Source: Acuticoccus sp. I52.16.1 (lineage in GTDB: Bacteria > Pseudomonadota > Alphaproteobacteria > Rhizobiales > Amorphaceae). From it: a stretch of 64,000 nucleotides of DNA. Shown one piece after another: positions 45,728-64,000 of the stretch. The stretch spans positions 2,108,001 through 2,172,000 of the forward strand of contig NZ_CP094828.1 in assembly GCF_022865125.1 (NCBI RefSeq), written 5' to 3'. A program made the translations under genes and the position numbers. How positions within the stretch are numbered: position 1 is the first letter of the stretch; the number at the start of each line of letters is the position of its first letter. Under the pieces are notes generated by a model. The model was not told the DNA's origin. It saw only the letters and a program-made list of their open reading frames with translations, and did no database searches.

Positions 45728-45815
45728 GGTTCAGAACTCCTCCAGCTCGGATCTACATATCACCCGAGCGGGGGAGTTCGACCCCACCGTTCGCCGCAGT
45801 CCGCCGGGACGGCTT

Positions 45816-46250
45816 CTACTCGCCGGTATCGGCCGCCTCGCCGAGCGTATCGCGCGAGCTCGCCTCCACGCGCGGCAGATCGTCGGTGATGTGCAGCCAC
45901 GGCAGGGCTGTGCCGGCGTGGGCGTGGAGCTGCGGCGCGAGGTCGGCGGCCTGATCGAGAAGCCCGAGCGAGACGAAGACCTGGCCTGGCAGATAGTCGT
46001 AACGTCCCGTCAGCGGGGAGCCGCACGCCGGACAGAACGTCCGCGCCACGCCGGGGTTGGCGCGGACCGTGGCGCCCGCCGGGGCAACGGTGACGTCCCC
46101 TTCGGCGAAGGCCGCGAAGGCGGCGACAGGGGCGCCGGTCACGCGCCGACAGTCGTCGCAGTGGCAGTAGGCGACCGTTTGCGGCGCTTGCGCGGCGTGG
46201 ATCGTGGTCGCCCCGCAGTAGCAGCGGCCGGTGATGGGCGCCGCACTCAC
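45816..46250 (-). CDS. GFA-family (glutathione-dependent formaldehyde-activating/CENP-V fold) protein
   Basis: 144 residues. Zinc-binding family with its cysteine sets intact: RCYCGATTIHA, YCHCDDCRRVTGAPVAAF and FCPACGSPLTG. Activity varies in the family; real formaldehyde activation is proven for few members. Its ATG overlaps the yggS stop, so both are co-translated. Confidence 0.9.
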   Translation of the reverse strand: MSAAPITGRCYCGATTIHAAQAPQTVAYCHCDDCRRVTGAPVAAFAAFAEGDVTVAPAGATVRANPGVARTFCPACGSPLTGRYDYLPGQVFVSLGLLDQAADLAPQLHAHAGTALPWLHITDDLPRVEASSRDTLGEAADTGE

Positions 46251-46936
46251 CCCGCGGCGATCGGCGGGCGGGCGCCGAAGATGGCGGAGCCGACGCGGAC
46301 CCAGCGGGCGCCGTGGGCGATCGCCTCGCGGTAGTCGCCGGACATGCCCATCGAGGTGGGGAGGCCGAGGCCGTCCGCGATCGTCTTCAGCGCCGCGAAG
46401 TGCGGGCCGGGCGGCTCGTCGGCCGGGGGGATCGCCATCAGGCCGATCACCGGGAGCCCCAGAGCCCGGGCGCGCTCCACCAGGGCGGCGGCGTCCTCCG
46501 GCGCGGCGCCGGCCTTCTGCGGCTCGCGGCCGATGTTCACCTGGATCAGGCAGCGCGGCATGCGGCCGACCGCGTCGGCGGCCTTGGCGATCGCCTCGGC
46601 GATCTTCTCACGGTCGACGCTCTCGATCACGTCGAACAGGGCCACGGCGTCCTTGGCCTTGTTGGACTGGAGCGGGCCGAGGAGGTGCAGCTCGATGTCG
46701 GGAAACGCCTCGCGCAGTGCGGGCCACTTTCCCTTCGCCTCCTGCACGCGGTTCTCGCCGACGATGCGCTGGCCGGCCTCCAGCGCGGGGCGGACGTGCG
46801 CGGCCTCGAAGGTCTTGGTGACGGCGACGAGGTCCACCATATCCGTCCGGCCGGCGGCCTTCATCGCGTCCGCGATCGACCTTTGGACCACACTCAACGC
46901 CTGCGCGACCCCGGCTTCGCTCACTTCACCCGTCAT
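46247..46936 (-). CDS. yggS: YggS-family PLP-homeostasis protein
   Basis: 229 residues. Fold-type III PLP protein that buffers pyridoxal 5'-phosphate. The PLP lysine lies in [10 protein letters not shown], followed by [27 protein letters not shown], and the phosphate-binding [30 protein letters not shown] 46936 is divergent from leuS, 69 bases away. Confidence 0.95.
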
Positions 46937-47004
46937 GGCGGTTGACCCTTCGGCTTCCCTCACCCATGGTCCGCCGACATCTCCCACGCCGGTTCCGAAC
47001 ACGA

Positions 47005-49818: not shown

Positions 49819-50329
49819 CGCCATCATCGCACTGGCGGCGGCCCTCGCGGTCGCCGGGTGCCAGGTTCGCCCGCTCTATCTCGACGCGGCGACGGGCGGG
49901 CCGTTGTCGCCGACGCCGGACCTCATGGCGATCGCCGTCGACCCGCCGCGCGACCGCACCGAGCAGGTCCTCACCAACGAGTTGAAGTTCCTGTTCCGCG
50001 GCGACGGCAGCAACGTCGTCGACCCGCGCTACCGCCTGCGCTTCGTGGTCGACGTCAGCGACGACCGCCTCGCCGTGGAGCTGGAGCAGGACCTGCCCGC
50101 CGCCATCCTGGTGACGCTGAACGCGACCTTCATCCTGTCCGAGATCGCGACCGAGCGCACGCTGCTGACCGGCGCGTCGACCGCCACCGCGTCCTACGAC
50201 TTCTCCTCCCAGCGCTTCGCCAACGTGCGGGCCGAGAAGGACGCGCGGGAGCGGGCCGCGCGGTCGATGGCGGAGAACATCGCGACCCGCATCGCCGCCT
50301 ACTTCGCGGCCAAGCGCTCCGACACGTGA
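49805..50329 (+). CDS. lptE: LPS-assembly lipoprotein LptE
   Basis: 174 residues. Lipoprotein signal with lipobox AVAGC at about residues 15-19, then an LptE-type alpha/beta domain ([52 protein letters not shown]). It plugs the LptD barrel for LPS transport. It overlaps the leuS end by 14 bases and holA by four. The leuS-lptE-holA order is conserved in many proteobacteria. Confidence 0.9.
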
Positions 50330-51351
50330 CCGCGGCGAAGGCCAACGAGGTCGGCCGCCGCTTCCCGCATCGCGACAAGCTGCCCCCCGTCGTCCTGGTG
50401 TTCGGGCCCGACCGCGGCCTCGTGACCGAGGTGTCGGACGCGATCCTCGCCCTCTTCGACGACAGCGACGACCCCTTCGCCATCGTCAAGCTCGACGCCG
50501 CGACGGTGACGGCGGACCCCGCCCGGCTGATCGACGAAGCGGGCACCATCTCGATGTTCGGCGGCAAGCGGCTGATCCTGGTTCGCGACGCCGCCGGCCG
50601 CAACATGTCGCCCGCGGTCGTGCCGCTGCTCGACCGTCCGCCGACCGAGGCGGTCGTCGTCGTCGAGGCGGGCGACCTGAAGCGCGGCACGGGGCTGCGC
50701 AAGGACGTCGAGAACCACGCGCGCGCCGTCGCGATCTACTGCCCCGCCGACACCGAGCGAGACCTCGACCGGATGATCGACGAGGAGGCGGCCAAGTTCG
50801 GCCTCGCCGTCGACGCCGACGCCCGCGCCATGCTGCGCGAGCGCCTTGGCGCCGACCGCGCCGCCTCGCGCGGAGAGGTGCTGAAGGCTTGCCTGCATGC
50901 CGCCGACGGCGAGGCGCTGACGACCGCCGACATCGACGCCGTGGTCGGCGACGTTGCCGCCAGCCAGATCGGCGAGGCGGTGGACGCGGCCTTCCTCGGC
51001 AACCGCCGCGCGCTCGACGCCGCGCTCGGCCGCGTGCTGCGGCAGGACAGCGCCGCGGTGCAGATCCTGATGATGGCACAACGGGTCTGCCACGCATTGG
51101 AGCTGGCCTCCGCCGCCGTGGCGCAGGGCGCGTCGCCGACGCGGGCGGTGGAGGAGCTGCGCCCGCCCCTCTTCGGTTCGCAGCGGGCGATGGCGCCGCG
51201 CGCGCTGGACCAATGGGCGCCCGGCAAGCTGCGCGCCGCCTCCGAGGCCATCGCCGAGGCGACGTTCCGAACCCGCATCATGCCCCACCTCGCCGCGGCG
51301 ACGACCCGCGATCTCCTCTTCCGGATCGCCTCGCAGGTCTCGCAGCGCTGA
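50326..51351 (+). CDS. holA: DNA polymerase III delta subunit
   Basis: 341 residues from GTG 50326, which overlaps the lptE stop. Clamp-loader subunit that opens the beta ring. Features: VVLVFGPDRGLVTEVSDAI, SMFGGKRLILVRDA, VVVVEAGDLKRGTGLRKDVE, then a C-terminal helical domain (AQILMMAQ-type AVQILMMAQRVCHALELA). Length and context fit HolA. Confidence 0.94.
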   Translation: MTAAKANEVGRRFPHRDKLPPVVLVFGPDRGLVTEVSDAILALFDDSDDPFAIVKLDAATVTADPARLIDEAGTISMFGGKRLILVRDAAGRNMSPAVVPLLDRPPTEAVVVVEAGDLKRGTGLRKDVENHARAVAIYCPADTERDLDRMIDEEAAKFGLAVDADARAMLRERLGADRAASRGEVLKACLHAADGEALTTADIDAVVGDVAASQIGEAVDAAFLGNRRALDAALGRVLRQDSAAVQILMMAQRVCHALELASAAVAQGASPTRAVEELRPPLFGSQRAMAPRALDQWAPGKLRAASEAIAEATFRTRIMPHLAAATTRDLLFRIASQVSQR

Positions 51352-51477
51352 GCCCGGCCCGCCTGCCGGACAGTGCGCCTAAGAAAAAACACTGTCGTCG
51401 ACCGCCCGCTGCCTTGAGGCTACTTGCGCGCGTTACGGAATTGTGAGAATTCTAGCCATCATTTGTTGGGGGTGCTC

Positions 51478-51990
51478 GTGTCTCCGCTGAAGTACTTGAT
51501 CTTAATCGTCTTCGTCGCCGGTCTCTGGTCCCCGGCCCATGCCGTGAACGACACGCGCATCCGCGCCGCCGTCTCCGGCCTCAAATTCGACCTCGAGGAG
51601 CTGGGCCAACAGCCTCAGATGCCATTCGCGATCATCGAGGGCATCGGCCGTCGCATGACCCGCCTGAGCCTCTCCTCGTTCAGTTCCTACCTCACGGTGA
51701 TCACGCGCTCCTTCAACCCGCCGCGCGACATTTTCGTGAATCCCAACGTCAACATATTCACCTTCCTGCGGACGCTGCCCACCGCGCAGAACAACCTGCT
51801 GTCGAGCAACCTCTTCGGCCTCGGCGCCGGTGTGGACACGCGACAGGAGAACGCCGCGGTCCGCCAGCGTCTCGCTCTGATCTTGAAGAACAACGGAGCG
51901 AACCGCACGCGCATCCGTGCCGTGCTGCGACGCATCCGCTTCCAGCAGAACACGGTGTTCTCACCGCCGCCGGTCGTCTCCGGAAACTGA
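51478..51990 (+). CDS. Small secreted protein of unknown function
   Basis: 170 residues from GTG 51478 (GGGGG seven bases upstream). Signal peptide ending WSPAHA at about residue 21, mature protein basic, rich in Asn and Arg near the end (LILKNNGANRTRIRAVLRRI). No cysteines and no known motif. There is no conserved family I recognise. Separated from holA by 126 bases; a strong hairpin follows 51 bases after the stop. Confidence 0.65.
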   Translation: MSPLKYLILIVFVAGLWSPAHAVNDTRIRAAVSGLKFDLEELGQQPQMPFAIIEGIGRRMTRLSLSSFSSYLTVITRSFNPPRDIFVNPNVNIFTFLRTLPTAQNNLLSSNLFGLGAGVDTRQENAAVRQRLALILKNNGANRTRIRAVLRRIRFQQNTVFSPPPVVSGN

Positions 51991-52041
51991 GTCTCTCGAG
52001 GAGCAGCCCTCCAGCGGACTGCGAGTCACCCGCGACTTGGG

Positions 52042-52063
52042 TGCGCCCGCTTTTGCGGGCGCA
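52042..52063 (+). terminator. Terminator hairpin after the secreted-protein gene
   Basis: TGCGCCCGC and GCGGGCGCA form a perfect 9-bp stem with a TTTT loop, followed by GTTT. It lies between the secreted-protein gene and the convergent MerR gene, so it may serve both strands. Confidence 0.7.
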
Positions 52064-52122
52064 GTTTCGCATTCGGAACGCGGCTGGCGGAACGCGGTCC
52101 GAGGTTGCTTCGCCGACCGTCG

Positions 52123-52518
52123 TCAGCAGGCCTTGCTGCGGCCGAGTTCGGCGAGCGAGTTGGTCGCGTTCCGCTCGATATCGCGCAGTTCGGCGAGGGT
52201 CTGAGTGAGCGCCGCGCTCTGCTCCTCCAACTTCTCGATCCGGGAGCGCACGCCCCTCAGCAGCGCGTTGAGCTGTTCCTGCCCCGCCTGGTCGGTCTCG
52301 TAGAGGTCGAGGTAGTCCTTGATGTCCTGCAGCGAGAAGCCGAGCCGCTTGCCCCGCTGCACCAGGATCAGACGGTCCCGCTCGTGCTCGGTATAGACCC
52401 GCGTCGTGCCGGCCCGCTTGGGGCTGATCAGACCCTTGGATTCATAAAACCGTACCGCGCGCGGCGTGAGGCCGAGCTCTTCGGCGAGTTGCGTCACCGT
52501 GTAAAACGAATGACTCAT
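52123..52518 (-). CDS. MerR-family regulator, LiuR-like
   Basis: 131 residues from ATG 52518. Winged HTH at the N-terminus (YTVTQLAEELGLTPRAVRFY, ESKGLISPKR), the arginine-rich second wing (RVYTEHERDRLILVQRGKRL, GFSLQDIKDYLDLY), then a dimerisation coiled coil. There are no metal-binding cysteines in the effector part; the only Cys is the C-terminal residue. It resembles LiuR, regulator of leucine/isovalerate catabolism, but no liu genes are in the window. Confidence 0.85.
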   Translation of the reverse strand: MSHSFYTVTQLAEELGLTPRAVRFYESKGLISPKRAGTTRVYTEHERDRLILVQRGKRLGFSLQDIKDYLDLYETDQAGQEQLNALLRGVRSRIEKLEEQSAALTQTLAELRDIERNATNSLAELGRSKAC

Positions 52519-53087
52519 GGCGCGGCGGCTCCAGACCAGCCGCGGTTGCCCAGCCGATTCACGTTTTCCGTGCATACACTGCCCCGCTCCTGCGACGGTG
52601 CCTTCCGTCCGTGCGGCGGTACCTGGGCCTTGGAAGGTTCGTCGAAAATGGCATCCCTCTGGCGAAATTCGCGTATCACTTAGACTTGACCCTTCCGCGG
52701 AGCCAAACAGTGGGCGCATCCGCGGTCATAATACCTGGCGGGGCGACGGTCCTCCGGTCGAGGGGAAGGCTCCAGGCCCGGCCGCCAGCGTTTCAACATC
52801 ACGATCACTTACTTGCAATTTATAATTGCTTGAGCGCTTCGATATTAGTGCTCCGATCATTACACGAATTTATAGCGCAATCGATTTGTGTTATGCAAGG
52901 TAATATAGCAGTTCGCGCGGCCCCACCGCCCCGCGCGCCCTGCGCGGGCGGGAACCACCTTGCGGTTGTATTCCGCCCCGCCCAGCGCCCGCAGCGCGCA
53001 ACCGACCGCACCCCGGACATCGTCACCTCGGCGCCGACCGTCAAGACGGCGCGAGCCCTGCCACCGGGCGCGGGCCCTCGGCGCATC
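52519..53087. other. 569-base gene-free region with an A+T-rich block
   Basis: Lies upstream of the MerR gene and downstream of the isochorismatase-family gene, both leftward. Bases about 52795-52915 are strikingly A+T-rich for this genome (about 60% A+T) and contain TATA/TTTATA stretches. I find no open reading frame with a ribosome site there and no tRNA. A short CACG-TTTTC-CGTG repeat at 52560-52572 lies 42 bases before the MerR start and may belong to its promoter. Confidence 0.5.
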
Positions 53088-53747
53088 TCAGAGCGACGCG
53101 AATTCGGCGAGCATCTCGTCGGTCGTGCGCACGCGGGCATAGTGGCCGTCCATCATGTCGATGGAATTGTCGTGCCGGCGCTCCTCGTGGGTGGCGCAAC
53201 AATCGGCCAGCAGCGTCACCAGGAAGCCGCGGTCGCAGGCGTCGCGGACCGTCGTCTCCACGCACTGGTCGGTGCATACGCCGTAGACCACCAGATACTC
53301 GATCCCGAGGTTGCGCAGCACGTACTCGATATTGGTGCAATTGAAGATGCCCGACGCGGTCTTGGGGATGATGATCTCGTCCCCCACCGGGCCGACTTCG
53401 GGGATCACCCCCGCCTCCCAGGCGCCCTTCGGGATGAACAGGCCGGAGATCATATGATCGAGGCTGATGTCTCGCCCGTCCTGGGTGAGCGCTTCGATCA
53501 CGGTGAAGATCACCTCGACCCCCGCCTCGCGCGCCGCGGCTTGCAGGCGCTGCTGGTTGGGGATCACGGTATCGCTCAGACGCGTGAGGAAATGGGCGTC
53601 GCCCTCCTCCCCGCGCCGGGCGCGGGCGGCCCGCTCGGCGGTCCACTCCATATTCTGCATGTCGACGGACAAGAGCGCGGTCTTGCCCTTTTCGACGGGG
53701 CGATCGCGGTCGGCCTTCTCGGCGGTGGCAACGGTCAGCTTGGGCAC
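53088..53747 (-). CDS. Isochorismatase-superfamily cysteine hydrolase
   Basis: 219 residues. Amidohydrolase fold with its triad visible: Asp (ALLSVDMQNMEW), Lys (IIPKTASGIFNCTNIE) and Cys (VYGVCTDQCVETTVRDA). The family includes N-carbamoyl amine, ureidoacrylate, biuret and nicotinamide hydrolases; the substrate is not readable. It is the last gene of the leftward ABC-transporter operon (12 bases after LivH), which suggests that it hydrolyses the imported compound. Confidence 0.9.
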   Translation of the reverse strand: MPKLTVATAEKADRDRPVEKGKTALLSVDMQNMEWTAERAARARRGEEGDAHFLTRLSDTVIPNQQRLQAAAREAGVEVIFTVIEALTQDGRDISLDHMISGLFIPKGAWEAGVIPEVGPVGDEIIIPKTASGIFNCTNIEYVLRNLGIEYLVVYGVCTDQCVETTVRDACDRGFLVTLLADCCATHEERRHDNSIDMMDGHYARVRTTDEMLAEFASL

Positions 53748-53758
53748 TTGGGTCCTTC

Positions 53759-54646
53759 CTAGGAACGGTCGACTTTGGCGGCGGGGACGAGCCCGTCCGG
53801 CCGCACGAGCAGAACCGCGATGACGGTGGTGAGCACGATGGCGTCCCGATAGGGCGACAGGCTATCGGGCAAAAAGGCCTGGCTGAACACCTCCACCGCG
53901 CCGACGAAGAAGCCGCCGAGGATCGCGCCGGAAAGGCTGCCCAGACCGCCGAGCACCGTCGCGATGAAGGCCTTGAGGACCGGGTAGAACCCCATCAACG
54001 GGTCGACCGAGCCGCGCTGCGCCGTCCAGACCACGGCGGCCATGCCCGCCAGCAGCCCCGACAGCGCGAAGGCGGCGGCGACCACGCGATCGGCCCGCAC
54101 GCCCAGGAGCCGCAACATCTCGAAGTCTTCGGCGGCGGCGCGCATCGCCATCCCGGTCTCGGTGCGGCGCAGGAAGAGCGTGAGGCCCAGCAGCGCCAGC
54201 AGCGTGGTGACAATGGATATCGTCGGGACGACGCCGACCGTGATGTCGCCGAGCTGGTAGGTCCCGGACAGCGAGGCCGGCAGCGCGATCGGCTTGGGCC
54301 GGGCCGAGATGCCGTTCTGGAACAGCACCTTGAGGATCTCGGAGATGGCGAAGCTGGTGATCAGCAGGGACACCACCGAGGCGCCGCGCATGGCGCGGAA
54401 GGCCACCCGTTCCATCGCCACGGCGGCGAACACGGCCGCAAAGATCCCGGTCGCCACGGCGAAGGGGATCGGCAGGCCGAACGCGGTCGCTGCGAAGACG
54501 CCGTAGCCGCCGACCGTCATGATCTCACCGTGCGCGAAGTTGATGAGGCGGACGATGGAGAAGACGATGGCGAGCCCCAGCGCCAGCATCGCGTAGATGC
54601 CGCCCAGCGAGAGCGCGTTCACCGATTGCTGGATGACGAAGTCCAT
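53759..54646 (-). CDS. Branched-chain-amino-acid-type ABC permease (LivH family)
   Basis: 295 residues with eight or nine helices. LivH features: NALSLGGIYAMLALGLAIVF, INFAHGEIMTVGGYGVF, then DRVVAAAFALSGLLAGMAAV and TVLGGLGSLSGAILGGFFVG (EAA-loop region). Works with the fused LivM-LivG protein, LivF and the binding protein encoded upstream. Confidence 0.95.
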   Translation of the reverse strand: MDFVIQQSVNALSLGGIYAMLALGLAIVFSIVRLINFAHGEIMTVGGYGVFAATAFGLPIPFAVATGIFAAVFAAVAMERVAFRAMRGASVVSLLITSFAISEILKVLFQNGISARPKPIALPASLSGTYQLGDITVGVVPTISIVTTLLALLGLTLFLRRTETGMAMRAAAEDFEMLRLLGVRADRVVAAAFALSGLLAGMAAVVWTAQRGSVDPLMGFYPVLKAFIATVLGGLGSLSGAILGGFFVGAVEVFSQAFLPDSLSPYRDAIVLTTVIAVLLVRPDGLVPAAKVDRS

Positions 54647-54652
54647 ATCGCC

Positions 54653-55356
<704 letters not shown>

Positions 55357-55360
<4 letters not shown>

Positions 55361-56514
55361 GGCTGCGGCAGCTTCTCGGGGTCGGCGGTGCCGCGGGAGA
55401 CGAAGTCTTTCGAGCCGTCGGCGTTGATCTTGGCGATCACCACCGGGCGCAGCGGCATCCGATCCGTTCCGGCGAAGGTGAAGTTGGACATGATCCCCTC
55501 GCCGTCTTCGATCGCGGCCAGCGCGTCGCGCACCGCCTGCGGGTCGGTGGACCCGGCCGCCTCGACCGCCTGCTCGATCATGTGGGCGATGTCGCAGCCG
55601 TTGACGTAGTAGTTGTTGTCGGGCTCGGTGCCGGTCGCCTCGGTATACTCCTTCACCCAGTCGCCATAGGGCGAACCCTCCTCGGGGAAGCCGCCGGAGG
55701 TGTGATAGGTGCCGTCGACGACGTCGCCGAGGCCGCGGATGGTCGGCGTATCGAGCACGTCGCCGCCCATGACCTGCGTGTCCAGACCGGCGCCGCGCAG
55801 CGCTTTGATGAAGGCCGGAAAGTCGGGCTCCCAGGCCCAGGTGACGATGAGGTCGGGCGCCGGCTCGGTCGCCTTGATGTTGGTGACGATGGCCGAAAAG
55901 TCCGGTTGGTTGAGCGAGTAGAGCGACTCGCCGACCACCTCGCCGCCATTCTTCTGGAAGACGTCGGCGAAATACTCCGGGCCGCCCATGGTGTAGGCGC
56001 TGTCGGGCGACTTGACGATGTAGACCTTCTCGAATCCCTGCTCGGTGGCGAAATCGGCCAGCACGGTGCCCTGCTGGTTGTCGGCGGGGTAGGAACCGAA
56101 GATGAAGTCGCCCACCTGGGTCAGCACCGGGGCGGTGCCGGCGAAGGTCATCGTGGGGATGCCCTCGGGCTGGGTGATCTGGCCGGCGGCGATCGTCGGG
56201 TCGGCGTCAGCCGAGGAGACGATGAACCGGGCGCCCGCGTCGACCATCTCCTGCGCGACCTTCACGGTCTCGGCCATGTCGGAGCGGGTGTCGCGCACGT
56301 CGAGGACGACATTGTATCGGCCGGCCATGCCGCCGGCCTCGTTCATCTTGTCGACGCAGTACTTGAAGCCGGCGTAGCTGGGCTGGTCGTAGGGGGTGAG
56401 GTAGCCGGACTGGGCGCTCATCACGCCGATCTTGTAGTCTTCGGCCTGGGCCGTGGCAGGGATGGCGAGACCGGCGGCAAGCGCGAGGGTCAGTGCCGAG
56501 GCGGCAGTTCTCAT
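55357..56514 (-). CDS. ABC transporter substrate-binding protein (LivJ/amide-type)
   Basis: 385 residues with signal peptide MRTAASALTLALAAGLAIPATAQA. Type I periplasmic binding protein: YKIGVMSAQSGYLTPYDQPS, MNEAGGMAGRYNVVLDVRDT, ISSADADPTIAAGQ-like (IVSSADADPTIAAGQITQPE). It is close to receptors for branched-chain amino acids, urea and short amides; ligand undetermined. ATG overlaps the upstream fused permease gene. Confidence 0.94.
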
Positions 56515-58364
56515 GGCTGTGCTCCTTCCTGGGTGTCTTTCGTGTGGGCCCGGCCGCGGCCGATGTAGGCCTCGATGACGGCCGGATCCTGGCGGATCGT
56601 GTCGGGCGTGCCCGATGCAATGACCTTGCCGCGATTCATCACGACGATGGACGAGGAGAGGCGGTTCACGAACTCGAGGTCGTGGTCGATGAGGAGGAGG
56701 CCGATGCCGCGCTCGGCCGTGAGGGCGGTGAGACGGTCGGCGAGGTCGGTGGTCTCGTCCGGGTTCATGCCGGCGGCCGGCTCGTCGAGCAGGATGAGGC
56801 TGGGCTCCTGGGCGAGGCAGCGGGCGATCTCGAGCCGCTTGCGGGCTCCGTAGGGCAGCGAAGCGGCGAGCGTATCGGCGACATCGCCGAGTTCGAGCGC
56901 CGCGATTTCGCGCAGCGCCAGGCTACTGGCGGCCGGCGGCGCATGTCCGGCCGCGATCGCCGCGACGAGCACGTTCTCGTAGACGGTGAGCGTTCCGAAG
57001 AGCCGGATGTTCTGAAAGGTCCGTGCGAGACCGAGCGGCGCGATGCGGTGTGCCGGCAGACCCGTCAGCTCGGTTTCGCCGAACCGCATCGACCCTTCGT
57101 CGGCTAAGAACTGGGCGGTGAGGAGGTTCACCACCGTTGATTTGCCGGCTCCGTTTGGCCCGATCAGACCCGTCACCGATCCCGGCGGCACCGCAAAATC
57201 CGCCTGATCGACTGCAGTTAAGCCGGCAAACCTTTTTGTAAGCCGGCTTACGGTCAATCCTTTGGCGGCATGGATCGGCGCGCCCCTTGCGATGTCTCTG
57301 CGAGGCAGGAAGGCGGCGATAAGACGGCCGAGCCCCGAGACCGACGCCTCGCGCGTGCCGATCAATCCCTCCGGGCGGAGCCAGATGACGAGGAGGATCG
57401 CGACGGAGAGCGCCACCGTGGTAAGCCCGAAGACGGCCGGAAGTTCCACGCCCGCCACCGTCACGCCGCCCTCCAGCTGGCGGACACCGTCCTGCAGCAG
57501 TGTCACCAGGACGACGCCGGTGACCGCGCCCGACACGGTCGCCATGCCGCCGATGATGAGCATCGCGACGAGCGCGAATATGAGGCCGAAGTAGAACGAC
57601 GTCGGCGAGAAGGCGCCGAGCATGAACCCGTAGAGCGCGCCGGCGACGGCGGCCATCGCCCCCGACCCGGCCCAGGCGATGAACGTCATGCGCCGCGCGT
57701 CGATCCCCAGTGCGGTGGCCGCGGCCTCGTCGTCGCGCACGGCGCGCAGCATCAGGCCCCAGCGGCTCTCGCGATAGAGGCGGGCCGCGACGATGAATGC
57801 GATCGCCGCCGCGAGCGCGACCCAGAAGGTCGTCACCCGCGGGACGCCGAAGAAGGTCTGACTGCCGCGGGTGATCTCGCGCGCGCCGATCAGCACCGAA
57901 TGGACGATGATGAGGAGCCCCAGAGTGGCGATGGTGGCCGAGGCGCCGCGCAACCGCGCGATGGCGAGGCCGCTCGCCCCGGCCGCCAGCAGGCCGACGA
58001 GCGCCGCCGGCACGAGCGCCACCCAGGGCGACAGCTCCCACCCGGCGAGGAAGGCCGGCAATTGCGGCAGCGCAGTACGCTGCATCAGCGCCGGCATCGC
58101 CAGGATGCCCGCCGTGTACGCCCCCAGCGCCATGAACGCGGAGTGGCCGAAGGAGACGATGCCGGAGTTGCCGGTGAAGACGCCGAGCGCCACCACCGCG
58201 GTCACGAACACGCACATCTGAATGGCGATGCGCTCGCCGGTGCGGCCCAGCACGTACCATAGCCCCAGCGCGACGACGGCGATGAACACGACGGCGAGCG
58301 CCGTCTGCCCGATCTCCCGCGCCAGTCGGAGCCGCGGCAGTTCAGCGAGAGCGGTCGTCGGCAT
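56511..58364 (-). CDS. Fused ABC permease-ATPase (LivM-LivG)
   Basis: 617 residues. The first 340 are a LivM-type permease with 9-10 helices (NSGIVSFGHSAFMALGAYTA, GIDARRMTFIAWAGSGAMAA). A short linker (ARGAPIHAAKGLTVSRLTKR) leads to a LivG-type ATPase: Walker A GPNGAGKST, signature LPYGARKRLEIARCL, Walker B ILLDEPAAGMNPDE. The two subunits are usually separate. Fusion fixes their ratio. First gene of the leftward operon, whose promoter must lie before 58482. Confidence 0.94.
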   Translation of the reverse strand: MPTTALAELPRLRLAREIGQTALAVVFIAVVALGLWYVLGRTGERIAIQMCVFVTAVVALGVFTGNSGIVSFGHSAFMALGAYTAGILAMPALMQRTALPQLPAFLAGWELSPWVALVPAALVGLLAAGASGLAIARLRGASATIATLGLLIIVHSVLIGAREITRGSQTFFGVPRVTTFWVALAAAIAFIVAARLYRESRWGLMLRAVRDDEAAATALGIDARRMTFIAWAGSGAMAAVAGALYGFMLGAFSPTSFYFGLIFALVAMLIIGGMATVSGAVTGVVLVTLLQDGVRQLEGGVTVAGVELPAVFGLTTVALSVAILLVIWLRPEGLIGTREASVSGLGRLIAAFLPRRDIARGAPIHAAKGLTVSRLTKRFAGLTAVDQADFAVPPGSVTGLIGPNGAGKSTVVNLLTAQFLADEGSMRFGETELTGLPAHRIAPLGLARTFQNIRLFGTLTVYENVLVAAIAAGHAPPAASSLALREIAALELGDVADTLAASLPYGARKRLEIARCLAQEPSLILLDEPAAGMNPDETTDLADRLTALTAERGIGLLLIDHDLEFVNRLSSSIVVMNRGKVIASGTPDTIRQDPAVIEAYIGRGRAHTKDTQEGAQP

Positions 58365-58404
58365 GGTATTCCATCGTCATTTCCGCTCGAAGGAAAGCGA
58401 CCCC

Positions 58405-58424
58405 TTCGTTCGATGTCAAACGAA
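58405..58424. promoter_or_regulatory. Inverted repeat between the divergent transport and amidohydrolase units
   Basis: TTCGTT and AACGAA are separated by eight bases (CGATGTCA). It lies 41 bases before the fused permease gene and 59 bases before the N-formylglutamate-amidohydrolase-like gene. A shared operator is likely but unproven. The palindrome spacing fits a dimeric regulator. Confidence 0.4.
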
Positions 58425-58482
58425 ACAATCTTTCGGAATGGCGGCATTTGCCACCGTCCATCCAGTGTGCGACCGGTAACGG

Positions 58483-59304
58483 ATGACGCTGGCCGAGACG
58501 CGACCAACCCCGATGGACGCCGCGGGCCCGCGCTGGGAGGGTGGCCTCCTGGCGCCGGGCGACCCCGCTCCGGTGCTGCAGCGGCGGGCGGACAGTGCCT
58601 CGCCGATCCTCCTCGTGTGTGATCATGCCGGTCGCCGGGTCCCGTCGCGGTGCCACCTTGGCGTCGCCGAGCAAGATCTTTGCCGTCACATCGCGTGGGA
58701 CCTCGGCGCGTCCGCCGTGGCCGAGCGGCTGAGCGACGCCCTGGACGCCGAGTTGATCGCCCAGCGCTACAGCCGCCTCGTGATCGACTGCAACCGGCCG
58801 CCGCACGAGCCGGACGCCATGCCACCGCGCGTCGACGGGACCGCGGTGCCCGGCAACGCCGCGGTCACGCCGGCGGACGCGGCGGCGCGGGTGGCGGAGG
58901 TCTTCATGCCCTATCACGCCGCGATCGGCGCCAGCCTCGACCGGCGGGCGGCGCGCGGCGAGCGGACCGTGCTCGTCGCCGTGCACTCCTTCACGCCGCT
59001 GCACCGCGACTATCCGGGCGCACGGCCCTGGCCGGTCACCTTCCTCTACAACCGCCTCCCCGCCCTTTCCGAGACGCTCGCGCACATCTCGCAGGCGCGC
59101 GGGGTGATGGCCGGGCTCAACGTTCCCTACGTGGTCGACGACCGCGGCGACTATACGATCCCCGTGCACGCCGAGCGGCGGGGCCTGCCCTCGACCCTCG
59201 TCGAGATGCGTCAGGATACCCTCGCCGACGACGCCGGGGTCGCCGCCGCGGCCGCCCTCCTCGCCGATATCATCCCTCTCGCCCTCGACCGGATCACGAC
59301 ATGA
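58483..59304 (+). CDS. N-formylglutamate amidohydrolase-family protein
   Basis: 273 residues. The FGase/HutG-type motifs are visible: LLVCDHAGRRVP, HIAWDLGASAVAERL, ALDAELIAQRYSRLVIDCNRPP, VAVHSFTPLHRDYPG, VPYVVDDRGDYTIPVHAERR. Such enzymes remove formyl or similar groups from N-acyl amino acids. No histidine-utilisation genes accompany it. Its stop overlaps the ATG of the glutamine-synthetase-like gene, so the pair is coupled. Confidence 0.9.
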   Translation: MTLAETRPTPMDAAGPRWEGGLLAPGDPAPVLQRRADSASPILLVCDHAGRRVPSRCHLGVAEQDLCRHIAWDLGASAVAERLSDALDAELIAQRYSRLVIDCNRPPHEPDAMPPRVDGTAVPGNAAVTPADAAARVAEVFMPYHAAIGASLDRRAARGERTVLVAVHSFTPLHRDYPGARPWPVTFLYNRLPALSETLAHISQARGVMAGLNVPYVVDDRGDYTIPVHAERRGLPSTLVEMRQDTLADDAGVAAAAALLADIIPLALDRITT

Positions 59305-60590
59305 GCTCCCCCCGCTTCGCCTTCTTCGGCAACCACGAGCTATCGGCCATCTTCCGGGGGCGCTCGGTGCCGATCGAGCTGGCGGATGGCGCGATCAAGT
59401 CGGGCATGCCCTGGGTGCCGACCAACGTGTGCCTCTCCGCCTCGAACACGATCCCGCCGGACAACCCGTTCGGCCCGATGGGCGAGACGCGGCTGATGCC
59501 GGACCCCAAGCGGCGGATCACCCTGCCCAAGCGTGAAGGACGGCCGGCGATGGACGTCTACCTCGCCGACATTACCGAGCCCGACGGGTCGTTCTGGGAG
59601 GCGTGCGGGCGCAGCCAGCTGAAGCGCGCGCTCAAGGACCTGGAGGCGGCCGGCTACAAGCTGAAGGTCGGCTTCGAGCACGAACTCTACATCAACGGCC
59701 TGACCGAGATCTCGGCGCCGGCCTACTCGCTGCCCGGCAGCCGCGCCGTCGCCGAGCTGGCCAGCGAGGTGCTGGACACGCTCGCCACCGCGGGCGCCGG
59801 CCTCGACCAGTTCATGTCCGAGTTCGGGCAGCATCAGTTCGAGGTGTCGAGCCCGGTGCGCGGTGCGCTGAAGGGGGCGGACGAGGCCGTGTTCACCCGT
59901 GAGGTGATCCGCGACGCGGCGCTGGCGCGGGGCCTGCGGGCGACGTTCGCCCCCAAGCCGGACCTCTCGCAGGCCGGCAGCGGCGTGCACATCCACATGA
60001 GCCTGTGGGACACGCACGGCGCCCCGGTGACCGGTGCGCACGATGCGCCGACGCCGGTCGCCGGCGCGTTCGCGGCGGGTATCCTGCGCCAGATCGAGGC
60101 GGTGATGGCCTATACCGCGCCGACGCCGAATTCCTACGACCGCATCGCCCCCTCCTCCTGGGTCGGCGCGTTCAATTGCATGGGGGTGAAGAACCGCGAG
60201 GCGGCGATCCGCTTCGTGCCGCGCGCGGCCGACAAGGACGGCAACAACCCGGCCGCCTCGATGGAATATCGCCTGACCGACGGTTCGGCCAACCCCTACC
60301 TCACCCTCGCCGCCCTGATCCGCGCCGGCCTTGCCGGGATCGGCGATCAGCTCGCCACGCCGGTCGGTGTCGACCAGGACCCGGCGACGCTGAGCGACGA
60401 GGAGCGCGCAGCGCGGGGCATCCGGCGAGTGCCGTCCTCTCTGGCGCAGGTGCTGGACGCCGCGGAACCGCTGGCCGCCGCGTGGTTCGGCGAGACGTTC
60501 TGGCGCGCCTACCGGTCGGTGCGGCGCAACGAGATCAACGACGCGGCCAAGTCGGCCGACTACGGCGCGCAGCTGGCGCGGGTGATCTAA
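59301..60590 (+). CDS. Glutamine-synthetase-family ligase (GlnT/gamma-glutamyl-amine synthetase-like)
   Basis: 429 residues. All catalytic elements of the GS fold are intact: GFEHELYI (two metal Glu), EFGQHQFEVSSP, SGVHIHMSL (metal His), NSYDRIAPSSWVGAFNCMGV, KNREAAIRFV and SMEYRLTDGSANPYLTLAALI. No adenylylation loop of class I GS is obvious. Likely joins glutamate to ammonia or an amine, perhaps the amine produced by the neighbouring hydrolases. Convergent with puuD, overlapping it by four bases. Confidence 0.9.
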   Translation: MSSPRFAFFGNHELSAIFRGRSVPIELADGAIKSGMPWVPTNVCLSASNTIPPDNPFGPMGETRLMPDPKRRITLPKREGRPAMDVYLADITEPDGSFWEACGRSQLKRALKDLEAAGYKLKVGFEHELYINGLTEISAPAYSLPGSRAVAELASEVLDTLATAGAGLDQFMSEFGQHQFEVSSPVRGALKGADEAVFTREVIRDAALARGLRATFAPKPDLSQAGSGVHIHMSLWDTHGAPVTGAHDAPTPVAGAFAAGILRQIEAVMAYTAPTPNSYDRIAPSSWVGAFNCMGVKNREAAIRFVPRAADKDGNNPAASMEYRLTDGSANPYLTLAALIRAGLAGIGDQLATPVGVDQDPATLSDEERAARGIRRVPSSLAQVLDAAEPLAAAWFGETFWRAYRSVRRNEINDAAKSADYGAQLARVI

Positions 60591-61822
60591 CCGTCGGCCA
60601 GCCAGCGGCGCACCTGCTCGCGCTCCTCGTCGGTCATGCCGGTGACGTTGCCGGGGGGCATGGCGTGCGACAGCACCGCCTGGCGGGCGATGCGCGAGGC
60701 CTCGCGGGCGATGTCGTACTCGCTCTCCAGCGTGACGCCGAGCGGGGGATGCACCATCCCCTCCCACATCGGCTGCGCCGCGTGGCACATCGAGCAGCGC
60801 GACAGGATGATGTTCTGCGCCGCCGGGAACGCGTCGGATCGCACCAGCGCGCGCATCTGCGAGTCCATCGGGTCGAAGCGGACACCGGCCGCCTCCTGCG
60901 TCGGCATCGTGCGCACCAGCGGGTAGGTGGACAGGCCGACGATCACCAGGAAGAGCGCGACGGTGACGACCCAGGTCCACACCAGGTGCCGGCCGGTCGC
61001 GTGCTTGGTGTTGAAGTAGTGGCGGATCACCGCGCCGAGGACGAGCACCACCGCGATGATGAGCCAGGAGAAGCGGGTCGACGTCGCGAGGGGGTAGTGA
61101 TTGGCGAGGAAGAAGAAGATGACGGGCAGCGTCAGGTAATTGTTGTGCAGTGAGCGCTGCTTGGCGATCTTGCCGTACTTGGCGTCCGGCTTGCGGCCGG
61201 CGATCAGGTCCGCCACCACGATGCGCTGGTTCGGGATGATCACCATCGCGACGTTGGCGGCCATGATGGTCGCCGTCATCGCACCGACGTGAATGAAGGC
61301 GCCGCGACCCGAGAAGACGTGGGTGAGGACGAACCCCACCCCGCACATGAAGAGAAACAGGATGATGAAGACGGTGGTATCGCCCGCCTCGATCAGCCGT
61401 TTGCACAGCTGGTCGTAGACGATCCACCCCGCCGCCAGCACCAGCAGCGAGATCGTGATCGCCTGACCGACCGACAGCGGCATCACCGCCGGGTCGATGA
61501 GGTAGAGGTGCGCGCCGGCGTAGTACATCAACGACAGCAGCGCGAAGCCGGAGAGCCAGGTGGTGTAGGCCTCCCATTTGAACCAGACGAGATCGTCCGG
61601 CATGTGGTCCGGCGCGACGCCGTATTTCTGAATATGGTAGAAGCCGCCGCCGTGAACCTGCCACTCCTCGCCCAGCACCCCGGCGGGGGCGGACTTCGCC
61701 GTCTTCAGTCCGAGATCGAGGGCGATGAAGTAGAACGACGAGCCGATCCAGGCGATCGCGGTCACGATGTGGAGCCACCTGAGGGCGAACATCGACCATT
61801 CCCACAGGTATTCGAGGCCCAT
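60587..61822 (-). CDS. puuD: Membrane-bound urate hydroxylase PuuD
   Basis: 411 residues. N-terminal membrane domain with eight or so helices (MGLEYLWEWSMFALRWLHIV, WIGSSFYFIALDLGL, FFLANHYPLATSTRF) and a C-terminal cytochrome c-like domain with one CxxCH (SRCSMCHAAQP) near residue 330. Oxidises urate to 5-hydroxyisourate and passes electrons to the respiratory chain. Divergent from an NCS2 permease, consistent with purine breakdown. Genes for hydroxyisourate hydrolase and OHCU decarboxylase are not in the window. Confidence 0.93.
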   Translation of the reverse strand: MGLEYLWEWSMFALRWLHIVTAIAWIGSSFYFIALDLGLKTAKSAPAGVLGEEWQVHGGGFYHIQKYGVAPDHMPDDLVWFKWEAYTTWLSGFALLSLMYYAGAHLYLIDPAVMPLSVGQAITISLLVLAAGWIVYDQLCKRLIEAGDTTVFIILFLFMCGVGFVLTHVFSGRGAFIHVGAMTATIMAANVAMVIIPNQRIVVADLIAGRKPDAKYGKIAKQRSLHNNYLTLPVIFFFLANHYPLATSTRFSWLIIAVVLVLGAVIRHYFNTKHATGRHLVWTWVVTVALFLVIVGLSTYPLVRTMPTQEAAGVRFDPMDSQMRALVRSDAFPAAQNIILSRCSMCHAAQPMWEGMVHPPLGVTLESEYDIAREASRIARQAVLSHAMPPGNVTGMTDEEREQVRRWLADG

Positions 61823-62018
61823 CCCACTCTCCCATCTGCGCTCGGCGGGGGCGCCGCCGGCCCCACCATGCGAGAACGATGCCGCCAGCCGGACCCCACG
61901 GCAAGCGCGCGCCTCCCCTGCGGCGGCGCCCGTCCCACGCTCCGGCGCTGCGCCCTGGACTGGCACCCGACGTGCAGGGACCGGGCGGCCCGTAGGCACG
62001 CAAGGTGGGACAGCGATC

Positions 62019-63431
62019 ATGGTGATGAAGGGGCTCGGCACACCCGAGCAGTTGCGCGACCCGAACTACACGCCGCCGCTCGCCAAGGCGGTACCGCTCG
62101 GCATCCAGCACATCCTGGCGATGTTCATCTCAAACGTCACGCCGGCGATCATCGTCGCGGGCGCGGCGGGCTTCGGCTTCGGCACGCCCGGCGTCGGCAA
62201 CCTCGTCTACATGATCCAGGTGTCGATGACCTTCGCGGGGATCGCGACGCTGTTCCAGACCATCGGCCTCGGACCGATCGGCGCACGGCTTCCGATCGTC
62301 CAGGGCACCAGCTTCGCGTTCATCCCGATCATGATCCCGCTGGTGGCCGGCCAGGGGGTGGAGGCGATGGCGACCATCACCGGCGGCGTCATCTGCGGCG
62401 GCCTCTTCCACGCCTGTCTGGCGCCGTTCGTCGGCAGGATCCGCTTCGCGCTGCCGCCGCTGGTGACGGGGCTGGTGGTGCTCCTCATCGGCCTGGCGCT
62501 GGTGAAGGTCGGCATCCAGTACGCCGCCGGCGGCGTCCCGGCGATCGGCACGCCCGAGTACGGCTCGGCGCTCAACTGGTTCGTCGCGCTGGTCGTGATC
62601 GTCGTGACGCTGGGGCTGAAGTTCTTCACCCGCGGGCTGTGGTCGATCTCGGCGATCCTCCTGGGACTGATCGCCGGCTACGTGGTGGCGCTGGTGCTCG
62701 GCATGGTCTCGTTCGGCAACGTCGCCCGCGCGTCGTGGCTCCTGGTGCCCGACCCGTTCCACTTCGGCGTCAGTTTCTCGTTCGCGGCGGTGATCGGCTT
62801 TTGTCTGATGGGCGTGATTTCGGCGATCGAGACGGTGGGCGACGTCTCCGGCATCACCAAGGGCGGCGCCGGGCGCGAGGCGACCGACCACGAGATCCGC
62901 GGCGCGACCTTCGCGGACGGTCTGGGCTCCGCGATCGCCGGCGTCTTCGGCGCGCTCCCCAACACCTCGTTCTCGCAGAATGTCGGGCTGATCGCGATCA
63001 CCGGCGTGATGAGCCGGCACGTCGTCACCATCGGCGCGCTGTTCCTCATCGTCTGCGGCTTCGTGCCGAAGATCGGCGCGGTGATCGCCACCATCCCGAT
63101 CGAGGTGCTGGGCGGCGGCGTGATCGTGATGTTCGGGATGATCGCCTCGGCCGGCGTCAGCATGCTGGCGGAGGTCGAGTGGGACCGGCGCAACATGGTG
63201 ATCTTCGGCGTGGCGCTGTCGGTCGGCCTGGGGCTGCAGCTCGAGCCCGACGCGCTGCAGCACGCGGACGCGACGGTGAAGGTGCTCCTGACCTCCGGCC
63301 TGCTGCCGGCGGCGACGATCGCCATCGTCCTCAACCTCTTCCTGCCCCAGACGTTGGCGGACGACCAGACCAGCGAGGAGCCGGACGGTGTTCGGCACGA
63401 CGCCTACCTGCGCTCGACACCCTCGCACTGA
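62019..63431 (+). CDS. NCS2-family purine (xanthine/urate) permease
   Basis: 470 residues with about 14 helices. Family signatures: LPIVQGTSFAFIPIMIPL, ETVGDVSGITKGG, and the NCS2 motif SQNVGLIAITGVMSRH. The QNVGLIAxTG form and position beside puuD point to xanthine or urate rather than uracil. ATG 62019 chosen; ATG 62025 is possible. Na+ or H+ symporter in the inner membrane. Confidence 0.93.
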   Translation: MVMKGLGTPEQLRDPNYTPPLAKAVPLGIQHILAMFISNVTPAIIVAGAAGFGFGTPGVGNLVYMIQVSMTFAGIATLFQTIGLGPIGARLPIVQGTSFAFIPIMIPLVAGQGVEAMATITGGVICGGLFHACLAPFVGRIRFALPPLVTGLVVLLIGLALVKVGIQYAAGGVPAIGTPEYGSALNWFVALVVIVVTLGLKFFTRGLWSISAILLGLIAGYVVALVLGMVSFGNVARASWLLVPDPFHFGVSFSFAAVIGFCLMGVISAIETVGDVSGITKGGAGREATDHEIRGATFADGLGSAIAGVFGALPNTSFSQNVGLIAITGVMSRHVVTIGALFLIVCGFVPKIGAVIATIPIEVLGGGVIVMFGMIASAGVSMLAEVEWDRRNMVIFGVALSVGLGLQLEPDALQHADATVKVLLTSGLLPAATIAIVLNLFLPQTLADDQTSEEPDGVRHDAYLRSTPSH

Positions 63432-63501
63432 GCGGCGGCGGGGCCGGACGATGCGGGTCGCCCTCGCCTCCCTGGCCGGCTCCGCACGCCGCGGCCGGCC
63501 C

Positions 63502-64000
63502 TCAGCCTCCCAGGTTGGCGAAGGGCTCGTAGATCCCGAGCGTGCGCAGGGCGTCGGCGGTCGGCGGCGAGTTTTGCAGGATCGCCTTCAGGCTGTTCCC
63601 CTCGTCGGCGTTGGCGAGCTCGAGATCGTGGCGGACGCCGTCGCGGGTCTCGTCACTGGCCTCGTTCAGCTCGATGTCGGCGATGACGAGGCGCTGAAGT
63701 GCGGCGCGGGACGAGTTGGGCGCCAGCTCCCGCGAGCGCGCGGCGGCGGTGCGGGCGAAATCGTCGTAGCCGGACGCGGCGGCGGCGATGGCGGCCGTGT
63801 TCCACGCATAGGCGTCGCCCGGCGCAGCCTCGATCCCCTGGATCGCGAGCTGGAGCGACAGGCGCTCGTTCTGCCAACGCAAAGATGCAAGTTCGGCTCG
63901 GTCGAGCAGGTAGCGCGCGCGATCGTACAGCGCGGCCTGCCCGGTGGGATGCCAGCTGTCGAGGCCGACGGCGATGCGAGTATCAGCCGCGAGGCTCGGC
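63502..64000 (-). CDS. TPR-like helical protein, N-terminus beyond window edge
   Basis: The last about 166 residues are visible and the frame stays open to the right edge. The part is helical and Ala-rich with TPR-like spacing (LAIQGIEAAPGDAYAWNTAA, FARTAAARSRELAPNSSRAA), ending LRTLGIYEPFANLGG. No signal for membrane association in the visible part. Function unknown; possibly envelope or polysaccharide related, but nothing here supports that. Confidence 0.65.
   Translation of the reverse strand, partial: PSLAADTRIAVGLDSWHPTGQAALYDRARYLLDRAELASLRWQNERLSLQLAIQGIEAAPGDAYAWNTAAIAAAASGYDDFARTAAARSRELAPNSSRAALQRLVIADIELNEASDETRDGVRHDLELANADEGNSLKAILQNSPPTADALRTLGIYEPFANLGG

What the first reader, a model, noticed from the sequence alone, without database searches (positions are those of the whole stretch)
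53088..60590. Candidate uptake-and-breakdown system: fused LivM-LivG importer, isochorismatase hydrolase, formylglutamate-amidohydrolase and GS-like ligase
A leftward five-gene transport unit with a fused permease-ATPase and a cysteine hydrolase at its end faces a coupled rightward pair of an N-acyl amidohydrolase and a GS-fold ligase, over a 118-base divergent region with a palindrome. Taken together these enzymes could import an amide, ureide or N-formylated compound, hydrolyse it and capture the nitrogen or amine as a gamma-glutamyl product. I know of no described pathway with this exact set.
Basis: inference. Interest (0 to 1): 0.6.

Follow-up and report, generated by a model that had tools for sequence, protein, structure and literature searches.

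The report
Candidate gamma-glutamyl pathway for amino amides
The genes look like one conserved bacterial set that imports a small nitrogen compound, most likely an amino acid amide, tags it with glutamate, strips off its amide nitrogen and then removes the tag; related sets occur in many bacteria, but no description of the pathway was found.

Summary
In detail: all seven genes lie at the stated coordinates, in two tight divergent units 118 bases apart. They belong together: in a 289-genome class sample, 22 of 29 GS-like places outside this genome have the isochorismatase-type hydrolase within 10 kb, against about 0.2 expected. Many modules with an importer like this one also carry a class III PLP enzyme close to caprolactam / amino acid amide racemase: outside the genus 13 of 24 with the importer, 0 of 30 without; one per genus, 9 of 19 and 0 of 23. 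Their binding proteins all carry an Asp that five other binding proteins lack, and those of the window's type have lost the Ser that in LIV-BP anchors the ligand carboxylate. My reading is a gamma-glutamylation pathway for primary amino amides: import, glutamylation by the GS-like ligase, amide hydrolysis by the cysteine hydrolase, removal of the tag by the FGase-family protein. Against it, this genome has no racemase (best 36%), no RpiR gene was found beside the set, and substrate and activities are inferred. The urate genes next door are shared by only three congeneric loci. It is a new variant of a known kind.

The parts
53088..53747 (-). isochorismatase-family cysteine hydrolase; proposed amidase of the (gamma-glutamyl) amino amide
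   Evidence: PF00857 121.9 bits; Asp29, Lys129, Cys162 conserved in 75, 75 and 72 of 75 matched relatives; model pLDDT 93.9; nearest solved folds an unassigned isochorismatase, BiuH, TrtA, RutB, maleamate amidase
53759..54646 (-). LivH-type permease of the importer
   Evidence: PF02653 139.2 bits
54653..55360 (-). LivF-type ATPase of the importer
   Evidence: PF00005 106.6 bits
55357..56514 (-). periplasmic binding protein; Ala104 in place of the LIV-BP Ser79, and Asp103 and Asp252 shared by all 34 module binding proteins compared
   Evidence: PF13458 196.7 bits; alignment to LIV-BP, positions counted by hand; columns in relatives and other binding proteins; model pLDDT 91.2
56511..58364 (-). 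fused LivM-type permease and LivG-type ATPase
   Evidence: PF02653 + PF00005 + PF12399 in one 617-aa frame; such a fusion in 19 of 64 modules
58405..58424 (.). palindrome in the divergent promoter region, candidate operator
   Evidence: unique in the genome at up to 1 mismatch
58483..59304 (+). FGase-family (PF05013) hydrolase; proposed gamma-glutamyl-amino acid hydrolase (tag remover)
   Evidence: PF05013 144.6 bits; far under the HutG cut-off; such a role proposed for SCO1615
59301..60590 (+). GS-like gamma-glutamyl ligase
   Evidence: PF00120 238.8 bits; NCBIfam gamma-glutamylputrescine synthetase 281.3 bits against cut-off 650, GlnA 175.7 against 429.15; best solved homologue 4hpp, PA5508

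Best explanation
It is a catabolic and nitrogen-scavenging unit that works by temporary gamma-glutamylation. (1) The HAAT-type ABC importer takes up a small compound with an amine and, in place of a free carboxylate, most likely a carboxamide (an alpha-amino acid amide or a close relative). (2) The GS-like ligase joins the gamma-carboxyl of glutamate to the amine with ATP. (3) The isochorismatase-type cysteine hydrolase cleaves the primary amide, releasing ammonia. (4) The FGase-family enzyme hydrolyses the gamma-glutamyl bond, returning glutamate and the free amino acid. In relatives an amino acid amide racemase feeds both enantiomers in, and sometimes an omega-transaminase-like or FAD-dependent enzyme is added; the Acuticoccus version lacks the racemase and presumably handles one enantiomer or an achiral amide. 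Shown by computation: the genes, their linkage, the triad residues of the hydrolase, the association of racemase-like genes with the importer, the altered ligand-site residues. Inferred: substrate, order of steps, all activities, and the tag-removing role of the FGase-family protein.
For: Linkage: 22 of 29 GS-like places outside this genome have the hydrolase within 10 kb, 16 of 29 the FGase (lower bound), 14 of 29 both; 61 and 54 of 64 gathered modules, which were partly gathered with the hydrolase. In four loci of two families outside the class (L114-L117) the order is RpiR-hydrolase-GS-FGase; the GS-like protein of one, L116, is 67% identical to PA5508. Ligase: PA5508 glutamylates organic amines. 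Tag removal: a PF05013 enzyme is proposed as gamma-glutamylglycine hydrolase in the ethanolamine pathway. Amide: a class III enzyme of module L039 has amino acid amide racemase 6gio as best solved homologue (E 5.7e-226); that of L057 has caprolactam racemase 2zuk at E 6.4e-244, just behind two entries named only 'Aminotransferase class-III'. Of 8 racemase-like genes in 289 genomes 5 lie within 10 kb of the GS-like gene, of 6 weaker class III hits none. On plasmids 26 of 35 racemase records are among the 40 listed GS-like records, 25 of these within 10 kb. Outside the genus the racemase is in 13 of 24 modules with an importer like the window's and 0 of 30 others (p 2.3e-6; one unit per genus 9 of 19 and 0 of 23, p 2e-4); with the fused importer 10 of 13, else 3 of 41. 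Hydrolase: same triad as triuret hydrolase and nearest to amide and ureide hydrolases. Binding protein: Asp103 and Asp252 in 34 of 34 module proteins; at the LIV-BP Ser79 position Ala or Val in 21 of 21 of the fused type, Ser in 5 of 5 others, none of which has Asp103.
Against: This genome has no racemase orthologue (best 36%), so the strongest substrate clue comes from relatives; 11 of 24 importer modules lack it too. Two of the 8 racemase-like genes of the class sample lie on contigs without the module (L112, L113). 7 of 29 GS-like places have no hydrolase nearby. No RpiR regulator was found beside the window's genes. The congener L037 carries an omega-transaminase-like gene beside the GS-like gene, which an amide pathway does not need. 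Twelve of 64 modules have two hydrolases, which the scheme does not explain. The binding-site argument is not clean: in the non-fused modules position 104 is often Ser or Thr, and two of the five binding proteins without Asp103 (L040, L119) stand beside modules that have a more divergent importer. PMC11335346 names spermidine and putrescine among PA5508 substrates. The PF05013 role in the ethanolamine pathway is itself a prediction. I saw no ligand, activity or expression datum for these proteins.
Confidence: 0.5

Rival explanations
1. Gamma-glutamylation pathway for a di- or polyamine-like or other amine: the GS-like ligase tags one amine, a transaminase or oxidase encoded elsewhere oxidises the other end, the FGase removes the tag, and the cysteine hydrolase deals with a side product.
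For: GS-like enzyme scores best against gamma-glutamylputrescine synthetase; PA5508-type enzymes act on amines, spermidine and putrescine being named in one paper; omega-transaminase-like gene in 6 of 64 modules including a congener and a 69% homologue elsewhere in this genome; FAD oxidoreductase in 5 of 64.
Against: The cysteine hydrolase is the most constant partner (61 of 64; loci were partly gathered with it) and I know of no place for it in polyamine routes; oxidising enzymes are rare in the modules; PA5508 was not induced by polyamines according to PMC6478659; the importer is of the LIV/HAAT type.
Confidence: 0.2
2. Ureide or urate side pathway: import and hydrolysis of triuret, biuret, allantoin products or another urate derivative, linked to the neighbouring urate oxidase and permease.
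For: Urate oxidase and NCS2 permease genes adjoin; the nearest characterised relatives of the hydrolase are biuret and triuret hydrolases, and triuret can arise from urate oxidation (PMC7948467 passages).
Against: The urate oxidase is beside the module in 3 of 64 loci, all Acuticoccus, and was not found beside the congener's module (L037, L099); BiuH model 89 bits against cut-off 370; ureides such as biuret offer no ordinary amine for the GS-like ligase.
Confidence: 0.1
3. Ordinary branched-chain amino acid or urea importer that happens to lie beside unrelated amidohydrolases.
For: Overall fold and nearest solved structures are LIV-type binding proteins.
Against: Linkage of such importers to the enzymes in many loci; Liv and Urt models far below cut-off for the binding protein (98.6 against 477; 56.4 against 492.75); Ala in place of the LIV-BP Ser79, and Asp103.
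Confidence: 0.08
4. The racemase-like enzymes racemise amino lactams, thiolactones or esters rather than open-chain amides, and the hydrolase opens a lactam.
For: Caprolactam racemase acts on alpha-amino-epsilon-caprolactam as well as on amino acid amides (PMC7431475 passages).
Against: Most named relatives of the hydrolase act on open-chain amides or ureides (substrates partly recalled from the names).
Confidence: 0.12

Closest known systems
Gamma-glutamylation pathway of ethanolamine (Streptomyces coelicolor SCO1611-SCO1615, Chromohalobacter salexigens)
   Same: GS-like ligase tags an amine; a PF05013 (FGase-family) enzyme is proposed to hydrolyse the gamma-glutamyl-amino acid at the end
   Different: No alcohol or aldehyde dehydrogenase among the seven genes here; instead a cysteine hydrolase and a HAAT importer
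P. aeruginosa PA5506-PA5509 operon (PA5508 = 4hpp)
   Same: GS-like homologue; L116, whose GS-like protein is 67% identical to PA5508, has the order RpiR-isochorismatase-GS-FGase-permease
   Different: No HAAT importer detected beside L114-L117; no function for the operon found in what I read; the contents of PA5506, PA5507 and PA5509 are inferred from L114-L117, not read
Puu / GoaS gamma-glutamylation routes (putrescine, aniline, 1-naphthylamine)
   Same: GS-fold ligase makes a gamma-glutamyl amide of an organic amine (PMC11335346 passages)
   Different: No oxidising enzyme and no class I amidotransferase-type hydrolase among the seven genes (their place in the known routes partly recalled)
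Alpha-amino-epsilon-caprolactam / amino acid amide racemase with stereospecific amidases (biocatalysis literature)
   Same: Close homologues of the racemase lie inside related modules
   Different: In the passages seen the enzymes are used one by one for chiral synthesis (PMC7431475); no orthologue in the window's own genome
Biuret (BiuH) and triuret (TrtA) hydrolases
   Same: Family, fold and D-K-C triad
   Different: BiuH model far below cut-off; about 25% identity

Membership tests
Gamma-glutamylation amine pathway | GS-fold ligase that is not glutamine synthetase | tested here: met
   PF00120; GlnA 175.7 bits against cut-off 429.15; best solved homologue PA5508. Activity not testable.
Gamma-glutamylation amine pathway | enzyme that removes the glutamyl tag | tested here: inconclusive
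   PF05013 protein overlapping the ligase gene; that role is a published prediction for a relative
Gamma-glutamylation amine pathway | oxidising step between tagging and tag removal | tested here: not met
   none of the seven genes; omega-transaminase-like gene in 6 and FAD oxidoreductase in 5 of 64 related modules
Gamma-glutamylation amine pathway | gamma-glutamyl intermediates in cells | not testable with these tools
   needs metabolite analysis
Amino acid amide racemase module | racemase gene in the cluster or genome | tested here: not met
   best class III hit in this genome 36% identity
Amino acid amide racemase module | importer, cysteine hydrolase, FGase and GS-like genes together | tested here: met
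PA5506-PA5509-type operon | RpiR regulator with hydrolase, GS-like and FGase genes in one operon | tested here: not met
   three enzymes present, but in two divergent units, and two RpiR queries found no match in window 45001-64000
N-formylglutamate deformylase (HutG) | over the curated cut-off of TIGR02017 | tested here: not met
   36.9 bits against 278.75; another gene of this genome scores 281.7
Biuret hydrolase (BiuH) | over the curated cut-off of NF050097 | tested here: not met
   89 bits against 370
Isochorismatase-like hydrolases (IHL) | Asp-Lys-Cys triad | tested here: met
   Asp29, Lys129, Cys162 (triad of TrtA)
Branched-chain amino acid importer (Liv) | Ser anchor of the ligand carboxylate in the binding protein (role recalled) | tested here: not met
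   Ala104 at the Ser79 position; NF011933 98.6 bits against 477
Urea importer (Urt) | over the UrtA cut-off | tested here: not met
   56.4 bits against 492.75

The most novel reading that the evidence does not exclude
A widespread, undescribed catabolic pathway for D- and L-amino acid amides through gamma-glutamyl-protected intermediates, with its own lineage of binding proteins that read a carboxamide where amino acid importers read a carboxylate. It would give amino acid amide / caprolactam racemase a physiological role and assign a function to the operon PA5506-PA5509 of P. aeruginosa. The Acuticoccus locus is a racemase-free, importer-bearing version.
Probability: 0.42. Interest if true: 0.75.

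Novelty: new variant of a known kind. Interest (0 to 1): 0.6.

Why it matters
If right, it adds a branch to the gamma-glutamylation pathways in which the tag protects an amine while a neighbouring amide is hydrolysed, rather than while a second amine or an alcohol is oxidised. It offers a natural context for a racemase known from biocatalysis (that its natural role is open is recalled, not read), and a testable function for PA5506-PA5509, which plasmids were reported to switch on in PAO1, all of those studied except pAMBL1 (PMC6246594 passages). It also points to amino amides, for example from amidated peptides (an inference), as a nitrogen source for which soil, plant-associated and marine Proteobacteria may keep dedicated genes.

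Tried and rejected
Urate or triuret degradation was my first idea, from the neighbouring urate oxidase. It was dropped when that neighbour proved limited to three Acuticoccus loci. N-formyl, picolinate/nicotinate-type and homarine routes were considered; the homarine search listed two papers that did not bear on it, and no ring-cleaving enzyme turned up among the neighbours that I annotated, which is not a full annotation. Loss of the ammonium-site Asp in the GS-like enzyme was tested and not found: the aligned position is Glu here and Asp in two relatives (the role of that residue is recalled), so that argument is not used. A first version of that alignment picked wrong reading frames and was discarded.

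The palindrome was sought elsewhere to find its regulator; it is unique in this genome and has an exact match in 1 of 129 loci (L025). Ten paper searches listed no paper that I recognised as describing the module; I saw listings, and passages of ten papers (PMC7948467, PMC6246594, PMC4409342, PMC6478659, PMC11335346, PMC9397018, PMC6529630, PMC7431475, PMC6061476, PMC11879879). None was read whole. The library lacks most subscription papers; one sought by identifier was not held.

Rows and values to know: one search did not print all FGase places, so FGase counts are lower bounds; 59 of its places were entered by hand. One plasmid coordinate (NZ_CP140887.1) was mistyped; the true distance is still under 10 kb. 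One search used 40 of 49 GS-like plasmid records, the rest not being printed; many of these plasmids come from strains of one species. In one search, L001-L024, six further loci and those of 5 kb or less were left out. Its tests labelled 'excluding the genus' (13 of 24 against 0 of 32) had wrongly kept two modules of that genus (L042, L046); one search repeats them without all seven modules of the genus, and adds a count of one unit per genus, and these are the figures given. The three loci fetched because of their racemase (L126-L128) were dropped from those tests. 'Importer' there means one like the window's (LivH at least 36% and LivK at least 27% identical); L040, L118 and L119 have a more divergent one and count as 'without'; with a laxer rule the figures are 13 of 28 and 0 of 26. 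In one search one partial binding protein (L026) has a gap at the site and was not counted. Modules were gathered with the hydrolase, the GS-like protein or the racemase, so the gene frequencies are not unbiased; the Mantel test does not correct for species relatedness. None of these mends changed my odds.

Full report
OBSERVATION. Searches confirm seven genes at the stated coordinates: a leftward unit (fused permease-ATPase, binding protein, ATPase, permease, isochorismatase-family hydrolase) and a rightward pair (FGase family, GS-like), 118 bases apart. Gaps of 6 and 11 bases and overlaps of 4 bases fit two operons. The divergent region holds an inverted repeat at 58405-58424, largely kept in two congeners and unique in the genome at up to one mismatch. 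The GS-like gene ends against a urate oxidase gene (PF06181) followed by an NCS2 permease gene.

THE SET IS REAL. In 61 genomes (relatives and this one) 22 have the hydrolase at E up to 1e-20. In 289 genomes of the class, the hydrolase, GS-like and FGase queries hit 40, 26 and 153 genomes. Outside this genome there are 29 GS-like places: the hydrolase lies within 10 kb of 22, the FGase of 16 (lower bound), both of 14; about 0.2 hydrolase neighbours are expected by chance. Of 30 stronger hydrolase places 24 are near a GS-like gene, of 26 weaker ones 1. Of 70 gathered loci with a GS-like gene, 64 have the hydrolase or the FGase within 11 kb: hydrolase 61, FGase 54, RpiR 37, importer 31, fused permease-ATPase 19, racemase 16, omega-transaminase-like 6, FAD oxidoreductase 5, urate oxidase 3. 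Annotated plasmids from Roseomonas, Shinella, Phyllobacterium, Sulfitobacter, Paracoccus, Antarctobacter, Ensifer, Sinorhizobium and Maritalea show the same partners, some sets incomplete within the stretch shown. Distances among the three enzymes correlate over 37 loci (r 0.47 to 0.62; 0 of 5000 permutations as high; species relatedness not removed). In a 388-genome phylum sample, 17 including this one have the GS-like protein; in four loci of two families outside the class (L114-L117) the order is RpiR, hydrolase, GS-like, FGase. The GS-like protein of L116 is 67% identical to PA5508 over 381 positions, and the gene after the FGase there is an amino acid permease, as PA5510 is listed (PMC9397018 table). 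I infer that PA5506-PA5509 is the same core; I did not read that genome. PA5507 and PA5509 appear only as hypothetical proteins in a passage of PMC4409342.

WHAT THE ENZYMES DO. The GS-like protein falls below the curated cut-offs for glutamine synthetase and for gamma-glutamylputrescine synthetase; its best solved homologue is PA5508, described as a gamma-glutamyl ligase with preference for bulky amines in one paper and of various amines, spermidine and putrescine named, in another (PMC6478659 and PMC11335346, passages). The FGase-family protein is not HutG by its model (36.9 bits against 278.75), and a gene over that cut-off lies elsewhere in this genome. In the gamma-glutamyl-ethanolamine pathway a PF05013 protein is proposed to hydrolyse gamma-glutamylglycine (PMC6529630 and PMC9397018, passages). 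I carry that role over: ligase and tag remover, their genes overlapping by 4 bases. The cysteine hydrolase keeps the Asp-Lys-Cys triad (triad from PMC7948467 passages); its model (pLDDT 93.9) is closest to an unassigned isochorismatase (3kl2), biuret and triuret hydrolases, RutB and maleamate amidase, which points to a primary amide or ureide.

THE CLUE TO THE SUBSTRATE. Class III PLP enzymes recur in modules. One kind (L029, L037) looks like an omega-transaminase. Of the other kind, the L039 protein has amino acid amide racemase 6gio as best solved homologue, and the L057 protein has caprolactam racemase 2zuk just behind two entries named only 'Aminotransferase class-III'; caprolactam racemases also act on amino acid amides (PMC7431475 passages). 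In the 289-genome sample 8 such genes were found, 5 within 10 kb of the GS-like gene and 6 near one of the three enzymes; the other two are on contigs where no module gene was seen (L112, L113); of 6 weaker class III hits none is near a GS-like gene. On plasmids, 26 of 35 racemase records are also among the 40 listed GS-like records, and in 25 of these the two lie within 10 kb; many are strains of one species. Outside the genus, and without the loci fetched for their racemase, it is in 13 of 24 modules with an importer like the window's and 0 of 30 others (p 2.3e-6); counted once per genus, 9 of 19 and 0 of 23 (p 2e-4); with the fused importer 10 of 13, otherwise 3 of 41. So importer and racemase go together, and the window's importer is of the type that usually has it.

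THE BINDING SITE. Aligned to LIV-BP (positions counted by hand), the window's binding protein has Ala104 at Ser79 and Asp103 at Cys78, and Thr127 at Thr102 and Asp252 at Glu226; the roles of the LIV-BP residues in holding the ligand carboxylate and ammonium are recalled. In 34 of 34 module binding proteins Asp103 and Asp252 are present; position 104 is Ala (18) or Val (3) in the 21 with the fused importer, and Ser, Thr or Phe in the other 13. Five other binding proteins in the fetched loci have Ser at 104 and no Asp103. Three of the five belong to separate importers; two (L040, L119) stand beside modules with a more divergent importer and no racemase, so Asp103 marks this importer type, not every module. 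The model is confident (pLDDT 91.2) and of LIV type. Loss of a carboxylate anchor and gain of an acid fit a ligand with a hydrogen-bond donor, such as a carboxamide, at that place.

MECHANISM. Import; gamma-glutamylation of the amine; hydrolysis of the amide with release of ammonia; hydrolysis of the gamma-glutamyl bond to glutamate and amino acid. The order of the second and third steps is a guess: tagging may come first because it keeps the amine out of the way. The window's genome has no racemase orthologue (best 36%), so here one enantiomer or an achiral amide is expected. It has a 69% homologue of the congener's transaminase-like gene elsewhere.

LIMITS. No substrate, activity or expression was measured. 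The second hydrolase in 12 of 64 modules, the transaminase-like gene in a congener and the regulator not found here are unexplained. The urate oxidase is shared only by three Acuticoccus loci and was not found beside the congener's genes (L037, L099); I treat it as neighbourhood, not part.

VERDICT. A new variant of a known kind (gamma-glutamylation catabolism), interest 0.6. Its value is that a specific, cheap ligand screen could settle it.

Noticed in passing
window 60587-61819 (-) and 62010-63431 (+), starts approximate: Membrane-type urate oxidase gene (with a CxxCH motif near the C terminus; cytochrome match under the Pfam cut-off) and an NCS2 xanthine/urate-type permease gene, the first convergent with the GS-like gene; next to the module only in three Acuticoccus loci.
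   Followed up: partly
window 52123-52719 (-): MerR-family regulator near the end of the importer operon, below the curated cut-offs of all 12 NCBIfam models listed; kept in two congeners (L025, L036) and not detected in a third (L037).
   Followed up: partly
L041:5426-6898: A Cap15-type cyclic-dinucleotide receptor domain fused to a nucleoside phosphorylase-like domain, upstream of a module; might be a defence effector.
   Followed up: no
P. aeruginosa PA5506-PA5509 (literature, PMC6246594): This operon, apparently the core of the same module, is reported as over-expressed in PAO1 with all plasmids studied apart from pAMBL1; why plasmids should induce it is unexplained.
   Followed up: partly
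L028, L029, L030, L032, L067, L071, L073: Modules with two isochorismatase-family hydrolases, one 62-66% identical to the window's and one 39-52%; suggests two successive amide or ureide cleavages.
   Followed up: partly
L060:10407-13436: A 1009-residue protein annotated as a class III aminotransferase inside a Paracoccus module, long enough to be a fusion with another domain.
   Followed up: no
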